Source of the DNA: Flavipsychrobacter stenotrophus
GTDB lineage: Bacteria > Bacteroidota > Bacteroidia > Chitinophagales > Chitinophagaceae
Assembly (NCBI RefSeq): GCF_002954265.1
Contig: NZ_PPSL01000001.1
Coordinates: forward strand, 1,054,001-1,118,000
Reading direction: 5' to 3'
DNA: 64,000 bases
Position numbers and translations under genes: made by a program. A model generated the notes under the pieces. The model worked only from the letters and a program-made list of their open reading frames with translations. It did not search any database and was not told the DNA's origin. Shown one piece after another: positions 24,686 to 55,943 of this stretch. Every line of letters begins with the position of its first letter. Within the stretch, counting starts at the first letter, position 1.

Positions 24686-25324
24686 ATGCTATCATCATCA
24701 ATTAACCCCTCCGGTATCCCTACCATCATTGCCGACAATTTCTGCACACAATTACTGGCATTCCAGAACGCTATCTTTGCCCGCCCCGCAGGAGACCAGA
24801 TCCCAACACAACAGGAGATCAATATGCAGACAAAGCTCTTGTCAAACATCATAAAGATCAAAAAGCTCAATGCTACTGACCATGTTGCAAAATTCATGAC
24901 TACATTTTGCCGCTTTCTGGGTAAGGAAGACAAAGAACAGGCTCAAAAAATTGCAGGCAAGTTTATACAGTTTATGGGCCTCGACAGCACAGACAGTGAC
25001 ATAGCGACTCAAGAAACAGTAATTGCCGAAACTAATCCCTTTGAAGCATCACCGCTTCAAGCTGAACCTTAGCGCTCCATTTATCCGGAATTTGAAAAAA
25101 ACAAGCATCTGCTCGAAGATTACCGCTATGGCAGTAAAGACTCAGAAGTGCAGATAGGAGAAAAGATCTACAACAAACAGTGTGTGGAATACAACCTGCT
25201 CCAATATACACTGCCTGAGGAATCCCGCAGATTCATTCCGGATCCAGGCGAATATCACAAGCTCATAGATCATGAACAAACCAAAAAACAAATAATACAA
25301 TATCTGCGCGCAAGAGTGGCATAA
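24686..25324 (+). pseudogene. Hypothetical gene interrupted by one in-frame TAG
   Basis: The frame opened by ATG at 24686 runs 128 codons to TAG at 25070-25072, then stays open in the same frame for 83 more codons to TAA at 25322. The second part has normal-looking protein sequence (RSIYPEFEKNKHLLEDYRYG...DHEQTKKQIIQYLRARVA) and no ATG/GTG/TTG start of its own near its beginning. The first part is a helical, charged protein of unknown function (TDHVAKFMTTFCRFLGKEDKEQ). This looks like a ~212-codon gene cut by a nonsense change; read-through or sequence error are alternatives. Confidence 0.65.
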
Positions 25325-54455: not shown

Positions 54456-55943
54456 ATGAAAAAACTATTGCTACTTATTTTTCTATTCGGCTCATTAGTT
54501 AGTAGTGCACAAAACTATCAATGCCTGCAAAACGGTGTTTTACACTACTTCATAAATGGCAATGGTTATTTAAGGGCTATTAAGATAGATTCTGTAACTA
54601 CCCTCCCAGACACTACCATCTTTTATCCGTTTCATACACCCAGAGGACCATACATAAGCAGCATACCTTATGTAGCACAAGATACTCTCGGAGGCAGTTG
54701 GGTTGGTGGCAAAGTGCTGGGGCTGACCGATGGGACTTTTATATTCGACAGCTATTGGGGCAATAGTGTCACCATAAAATCTCGGGGTTCAACTGGCGCC
54801 ACCTGGCTGTTCTTTAGCGATTCCAGCACGCGATATTATCAGGCCCAGATGTTGAATACCGATACTATGTCTGTATTAGGAGCCTTGGATTCAGTGAAAA
54901 GAATATTGATCACTGCGCATGATCCATCGGGATTAGTGGTGTCTGATCCATTAGATAGTTTCCAGATCATTCTCAGCAAAAACCACGGTTTTGTACAGGT
55001 ATTTGATCTGTATACTTTTCCATATCATAAACCAGATTCAGTATATCGGTCCGGGCTCGACTTCTTTTTAGACAGATCAACGCATACTTATTATGACGTT
55101 AATGCTTTTGGAGGAAACGCACCCAACAAAAACATCTCCATTTTTAACCTTACAGACTTTACGAACCCAAATGATCAACAATTACATAGCTGGAATATTG
55201 GTGATGTTTTTGAAGTAGAAAATGAAACGGGTACGATGTCCCCCTACCCCCCTTATATTATCGATTACACATTAGATACCGTTGTCAATAAGGTAGTTCT
55301 ACCACACAGCACAATTTACTCCATTCGTGGATCTTCATTTAATTATACAATACCTGTTTACGAAACTTTCCATGCAGGCAACATCACGTGTACAGATGGG
55401 AATTTCATTATCGCAGATAGCAATGTGATACCAGAATCGAAGATCAGTTTTTATAACAATAATTATGTTTTCTATTTCCCAAAAGATACAAGCTGGTGCA
55501 GGCAAGGACCATTATATAAAGTCGTTGGTCCGGCATAGCAATGGGAAGGTCTTGGCGGTCACTTTGGATTTAATATTTATAAATTGGGAATCGGCCTTAT
55601 AATTCATTATTACACTGATGGCAACCCAACGCATGAAGATGATTGGCTAATATACTGCAAAACGGTAGGCGAAGAATGCGGTCATAACGTTTGGCCCGTT
55701 GGCATTAATCAAGTAACAAATGATCAGACCATACATCTCTTTCCGAACCCGGTCTTGAACTCGTTAACAATAGTTACACCGTTTGATACACTGAGCGTTA
55801 TCATATCAGATGCTGTGGGTAAAGTGATCAAATCCGAAAAATGCAACGGCGGCAACCTAGTATTTGATCTTTCCAATATCCCACCTGGCCTCTATTTTGC
55901 GAGGATCAACGGGATAGAAGTAAGGAAGTTCGTAAAAGAATAA
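54456..55943 (+). pseudogene. T9SS secreted protein interrupted by one in-frame TAG
   Basis: One frame of 495 codons (ATG 54456 to TAA 55943) carries a single TAG at 55536-55538. Before it: signal peptide MKKLLLLIFLFGSLVSSAQ and ~340 residues of Tyr/Asp/Pro-rich secreted sequence. After it: QWEGLGGHFGFNIYKLGIGL and a complete T9SS sorting domain (LFPNPVLNSLTIV...PPGLYFARINGIEVRKFVKE). The second part has only a weak TTG start 15 codons in, so it is not a separate gene by design. Without read-through the protein would lack its secretion signal. The tail nearly equals that of the gene at 60.5-61.4 kb. Sequencing error is an alternative. Confidence 0.85.

What the first reader, a model, noticed from the sequence alone, without database searches (positions are those of the whole stretch)
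54456..55943. T9SS gene cut by a single in-frame TAG
One open frame of 495 codons has exactly one stop inside, TAG at 55536-55538. Everything after it, including a complete sorting domain, is in the same frame and has no good start. If read as a stop, the product is missing its secretion signal. Together with the TAG at 25070, two unrelated genes in 64 kb carry one amber each and no frameshift. This could be recent nonsense mutation, read-through or an assembly error. TAG is still an ordinary stop elsewhere here (SPFH, TIM44, yceD, GIY-YIG-like), so code reassignment is unlikely.
Basis: partly seen in the sequence, partly recalled or inferred. Interest (0 to 1): 0.7.

Follow-up and report, generated by a model that had tools for sequence, protein, structure and literature searches.

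The report
Secreted-protein gene broken by one stop
A gene for a secreted bacterial protein has one stop codon in its middle that cuts off its export tag; relatives suggest this is most likely ordinary recent gene decay (or a wrong base in the assembly), not a new way of reading the genetic code.

Summary
The frame 54456-55943 is open except for one TAG at 55536-55538, and a type IX (T9SS) sorting domain lies in frame behind it. Thirteen aligned homologues, one of them a second copy in the same genome, are single proteins of 477-531 residues. The family is multi-copy and often broken: of 104 near-full-length copies in 47 genomes, 6 are disrupted, 2 by a single in-frame stop (this TAG; a TAA seven alignment columns upstream in L061/G417) and 4 by frameshift. 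No test supports programmed decoding: RF1 is intact, none of 44 tRNAs found reads a stop codon, PylS stays far below its cut-off, TAG ends many ordinary ORFs, no RNA structure stands out behind the stop, and no other copy was seen with a stop at this column. The second TAG (25070) is real too, but in an 864 kb sample of the genome a third gene is cut by TAA, so the pattern is not only amber. Best reading: a young nonsense-interrupted gene, or a base error that reads would reveal.

The parts
54456..55535 (+). Upstream part of the interrupted gene: apparent signal peptide plus most of an unnamed T9SS cargo domain (360 codons)
   Evidence: clear homologues 38-46% identical and 48-53%
55536..55538 (+). 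In-frame TAG, in a poorly conserved loop between an invariant Cys (C350 of L055) and the next conserved strand
55539..55943 (+). Rest of the frame (134 codons and TAA): end of the main domain, second invariant Cys, sorting domain
55737..55940 (+). T9SS type A sorting domain (TIGR04183 / PF18962)
25070..25072 (+).

Best explanation
A member of a multi-copy family of T9SS-exported proteins carries one recent nonsense codon (or a wrong base call at that place; the confidence given covers both branches, the error branch being rival 1). Translation ends at the TAG with release factor 1. The product has an apparent signal peptide and so may reach the periplasm, but it lacks the last strands of its main domain and the C-terminal sorting domain, so it should not be exported by T9SS and is probably degraded. 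The gene is a young pseudogene in a family whose copies are often broken. Shown: the frame, the stop, intact relatives, other broken copies, intact RF1, no suppressor tRNA found. Inferred: recency, fate of the product, loss of function.
For: Intact relatives read through the site. An intact paralogue is in the same genome (39% identical, 550-codon frame). In G005 an intact relative lies behind an ftsH-like gene as in the window (ftsH named by eye). 6 of 104 near-full-length copies in 47 genomes are disrupted, 2 by a stop and 4 by frameshift. No tRNA with anticodon CTA, TTA or TCA among the 44 found; RF1 and RF2 intact; PylS below its cut-off. The frame behind the TAG is otherwise undamaged and the whole gene matches the full-length profile with one stop (619.9 bits), as expected for a young lesion. 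No unusual RNA structure follows the stop (z = 0.55).
Against: No strain of the same species and no reads were available, so age of the lesion and base-calling error cannot be told apart. The nearest relatives found are about 53% identical, so selection behind the stop cannot be measured. A second, independent in-frame stop lies only seven alignment columns away in L061, a mild coincidence that plain decay does not predict. Among the 42 coding-like junctions of the own-genome sample TAG is 16 (38%), against 78 of 287 (27%) of the stops of long ORFs, a slight excess in the amber direction that I did not test.
Confidence: 0.87

Rival explanations
1. Assembly or base-calling error: the organism has an intact gene and the TAG exists only in the assembly. 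(This is one branch of the best explanation, priced on its own here.)
For: A single lesion in an otherwise undamaged frame; the assembly is in 21 contigs with 1.23% estimated contamination. Two other supported single-stop interruptions (25070, L179) and one unresolved (L205) in an 864 kb sample would fit a low error rate too.
Against: No direct evidence either way. Broken copies also occur in other genomes, which favours real decay unless those are errors as well.
Confidence: 0.3
2. Leaky stop: most ribosomes stop and leave an unexported form; a few read through and make the exported form, so the TAG sets the secreted dose.
For: Both halves are intact. A copy in another genus (L061/G417) has a TAA seven columns upstream with an intact sorting domain behind it. 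The base after the TAG is C, seen after 19 of 93 TAG stops of long ORFs here, so it is neither the favoured nor a rare context. In-frame stops with dN/dS below 1 have been reported across bacterial genomes (PMC7918605: abstract, and the first part each of its Results and Discussion, read).
Against: Different stop codon, position and flanks in the two genes. No downstream RNA structure beyond shuffles in either. Only 2 of 104 copies are cut by a single in-frame nonsense codon. Intact RF1, no suppressor tRNA found. The truncated form ends inside the main domain.
Confidence: 0.06
3. Two separate genes: the downstream part is translated on its own.
For: An open frame of 119 aa from TTG 55584 exists.
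Against: It would start inside the conserved YKLGIG strand, shows no signal peptide by eye and no in-frame ATG; the 13 aligned intact homologues are single proteins.
Confidence: 0.01
4. TAG reassigned to an amino acid or pyrrolysine in this organism.
For: Two TAG-interrupted genes in the window.
Against: 78 of 287 ORFs of at least 300 codons in the sample end in TAG; RF1 present; no matching tRNA found; PylS hits only 21.3 and 13.7 bits against a cut-off of 178.15.
Confidence: 0.005

Closest known systems
Nonsense-interrupted bacterial genes / young pseudogenes (e.g. the survey of in-frame stops in bacterial genes, PMC7918605)
   Same: One in-frame stop, both halves homologous to one intact protein, frame otherwise undamaged; the survey says that such stops tend to persist only for short evolutionary times
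   Different: Here no close strain is available, so persistence and selection could not be measured
T9SS cargo proteins with a type A C-terminal sorting domain (TIGR04183 / PF18962)
   Same: Apparent signal peptide, an unnamed secreted domain and the sorting domain behind it
   Different: The stop separates the cargo from its sorting domain; the cargo domain has no Pfam or NCBIfam match
Programmed stop readthrough, selenocysteine or pyrrolysine decoding (recalled as kinds)
   Same: A single in-frame stop with homologous sequence behind it
   Different: No conserved stop position, no decoding tRNA found, no downstream structure, stop inside a domain

Membership tests
T9SS type A cargo | C-terminal sorting domain above the curated cut-off | tested here: met
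   35.5 bits (cut-off 27) and 35 bits (cut-off 23) for the piece behind the TAG; only met if the gene is taken across the stop
T9SS type A cargo | N-terminal signal peptide | tested here: inconclusive
   Read by eye; no predictor run
Nonsense-interrupted gene | Both sides of the stop are one protein in relatives | tested here: met
Nonsense-interrupted gene | Loss of selection behind the stop | not testable with these tools
   nearest relatives found about 53% identical; no conspecific genome
Programmed readthrough / recoding | Same stop conserved in relatives | tested here: not met
   no stop in this column among the other 103 copies, judged from stops counted and frame lengths (G424:C310 ends before the site, at a contig end); one copy has a TAA seven columns upstream
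Programmed readthrough / recoding | Stimulating RNA structure 3' of the stop | tested here: not met
   z 0.55 for the 100 bases from the stop, (pseudoknots not considered)
Amber suppression or pyrrolysine | tRNA reading UAG, or PylS | tested here: not met
   44 tRNAs found by RF00005 (150 of 233 first-look candidates scored), none with CTA; PylS below cut-off; a very divergent tRNA could be missed

The most novel reading that the evidence does not exclude
The stretch just behind the first invariant cysteine of this T9SS cargo family is a place where stop codons arise repeatedly and are kept as leaky dose controls on secretion; the window gene (TAG) and the L061 gene (TAA, seven columns upstream, intact sorting domain behind it) would be two independent cases.
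Probability: 0.04. Interest if true: 0.55.

Novelty: new member of a known kind. Interest (0 to 1): 0.12.

Why it matters
Little by itself: it is one broken copy in a gene family that breaks often. It matters for annotation (two short ORFs belong to one interrupted gene) and as a caution: a single amber with an intact domain behind it is not evidence of recoding when relatives, tRNAs and release factors say otherwise.

Tried and rejected
Code reassignment and pyrrolysine: not supported by RF1, the tRNA list, PylS scores and TAG usage. Separate downstream gene: rejected on start codon and relatives. Special 3' context: the three bases after the TAG recall (from memory) the start of a plant-virus readthrough context, but the rest does not match, and TAG followed by C is not rare at ends of long ORFs here (19 of 93); dropped. 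RNA structure behind the stops at 55536, 25070 and in L061: z 0.55, 1.04 and 0.71, none better than shuffles. Relatives in viral contigs: 40 stretches matched a pattern, none was confirmed. Fold comparison of an intact relative (L055; model mean pLDDT 61.3): 767 PDB matches at E <= 10 but none at E <= 0.001; among the best 50 shown, short alignments of high probability include T9SS entries (8qb1, 8gl8), which I take (inferred) to be the sorting domain; no function for the main domain follows. Selection at the second TAG: dN/dS behind it is not higher than before it (0.072 against 0.138 versus G010), so that lesion too is young or not real, but synonymous sites are near or at saturation. The TAA candidate at L205:13544 has no relative in 38 other genomes and stays unresolved. 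Papers: a search for type IX secretion, premature stop codon and C-terminal domain gave 0 papers, and one for T9SS, C-terminal domain, sorting and readthrough gave 0; two further searches were seen as listings only, except that of PMC7918605 I read the abstract and outline and the first of two parts each of Results and Discussion.

In the own-genome survey 42 of 928 in-frame junctions passed the coding filter. I read 17 of these as translations besides the two TAGs of the finding; of the other 23, 22 have an in-frame ATG within 11 codons (taken as ordinary neighbours, not read one by one) and one is the gene's own final TAA. The filter would miss weakly coding or short pieces. The sample was 40 stretches of 20 kb (37 at steps along two contigs, one each from three others) plus the window, not the whole genome.

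Full report
The frame. Bases 54456-55943 on the plus strand read as 360 codons, TAG at 55536-55538, 134 codons and TAA. The upstream piece begins with what looks like a signal peptide and has no Pfam or NCBIfam match; the downstream piece carries a T9SS type A sorting domain above the curated cut-offs of both libraries. The first start codon for the downstream piece on its own is TTG at 55584, inside a conserved strand, with no signal peptide by eye.

Relatives. A search of the upstream piece in 39 genomes (the window's and 38 relatives) found matches in 9, the window's own included, and a second copy in the own genome; a search of the genus (11 held genomes) gave the same places. A scan of named species genomes gave 10 more loci at 48-53% identity, all MAGs titled Bacteroidetes, Chitinophagaceae or Flavipsychrobacter. 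That the window comes from this group is inferred from these titles. In G005 the relative lies directly behind an ftsH-like gene, as in the window, and is intact. Thirteen intact proteins (one is the own paralogue, one the first copy of L061) were aligned over their full length (477-531 residues); they share two invariant cysteines that flank the site (C350 and C410 of L055).

How often the family breaks. With the part before the sorting domain as a profile I then searched 39 genomes picked from earlier hits and their kin (34 matched) and the 35 held genomes of the genus of G121 (30 matched); 8 genomes are in both, so 66 are distinct. Matches that cover at least 300 of 414 positions give 104 copies in 47 genomes (shorter matches were left out). 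Two are interrupted by a single in-frame stop: the window gene, and the middle of three neighbouring copies in L061, which is G417 by its coordinates (TAA at L061 6015-6017, sorting domain intact behind it). The TAA reported in G180:C4 comes with a frame change near the N-terminus. G415:C32, G419:C68 and G346:C95 change frame; G346:C95 also lies near a contig start. Three more short frames lie at contig ends by their coordinates (G010:C142, G244:C8, G424:C310). So 6 of 104 copies are broken, by more than one kind of lesion. Some of these could themselves be assembly errors, and the genomes were chosen for having the family, so 6 of 104 is a description of this set and not a rate.

The near-coincidence. 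In an alignment of the window gene, the L061 copy and the 13 intact proteins, the TAA of L061 falls seven columns before the TAG of the window. The TAA stands in a column that holds Y or F in nearly all intact rows, the TAG in a variable one. Stop codons, exact places and flanks differ. I treat it as chance, but it is the one observation that keeps the leaky-stop reading alive.

Decoding. The genome has 44 tRNA matches (150 of 233 first-look candidates scored); ARAGORN on all 44 places gives no anticodon that pairs with a stop codon. ARAGORN on the 864 kb sample shows six tRNAs, none of them such. RF1 and RF2 genes are intact (which is which by motifs recalled from memory). PylS scores 21.3 and 13.7 bits against a cut-off of 178.15; at that loose E-value all 14 control genomes also ring, one over the cut-off. 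In the sample, 78 of 287 ORFs of at least 300 codons end in TAG. The 100 bases from each stop fold no better than shuffles.

Is it amber-specific? Of 928 in-frame stops with long open stretches on both sides in 864 kb of this genome, 42 look coding on both sides; 16 are TAG, 21 TAA, 5 TGA. Most have a start codon close behind and look like ordinary neighbouring genes. Interruptions supported by relatives are 55536 (TAG), 25070 (TAG; closest relatives of 222-236 codons run across it) and L179:17418 (TAA; the four relatives aligned have frames of 562-592 codons; the upstream piece aligns with them in a multiple alignment only, not by tblastn; other matches in that search had frames of 220-584 codons, and one, G007:C8, of 443 matched in two pieces). 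A fourth, L205:13544 (TAA), has no relatives and is unresolved. Two of the three lie within one 64 kb window, which is somewhat clustered, but the window was brought to me because of them. TAG is 38% of the 42 junctions against 27% of long-ORF stops, a slight excess that I did not test.

What the stop removes. The model of an intact relative is of modest quality (mean pLDDT 61.3, pTM 0.45). The TAG corresponds to its residue 363, in a low-confidence loop (363-370) between strands 353-360 and 374-377. The truncated product would lose the last strands of the main domain (up to about residue 410), the second invariant cysteine and the sorting domain. No solved structure matches at E <= 0.001.

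Verdict. A young nonsense-interrupted copy in a multi-copy T9SS cargo family, or a base error; readthrough is possible in principle but has no positive support beyond the near-coincidence. This is an ordinary kind of finding.

Noticed in passing
window 54456-55943; L010, L011, L018, L052-L061: The cargo domain belongs to an unnamed family (start QNYQCLQ..., two invariant Cys flanking the stop site) with up to six matches per genome, often in tandem; no Pfam or NCBIfam model was hit by the upstream piece.
   Followed up: partly
L061 4962-6437: Middle one of three neighbouring copies in a Flavipsychrobacter MAG is cut by an in-frame TAA, with an intact sorting domain behind it.
   Followed up: yes
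window 24686-25324: Second TAG-interrupted gene; its C-terminal part has five matches in the own genome, itself included, and the linker between its two conserved parts is variable, Q-rich in G004; no Pfam match.
   Followed up: partly
L179 15997-17835 (G000:C11), minus strand: Another gene of the same genome cut by a single in-frame TAA; four aligned relatives are single frames of 562-592 codons.
   Followed up: partly
L205 12161-13867 (G000:C14): 461-codon and 107-codon frames separated by one TAA, both coding-like; the 107-codon piece has no relatives in 38 other genomes.
   Followed up: partly
whole genome G000: 150 places over the cut-off for the T9SS sorting domain among 150 scored of 266 candidates, so the true number is at least that.
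   Followed up: no
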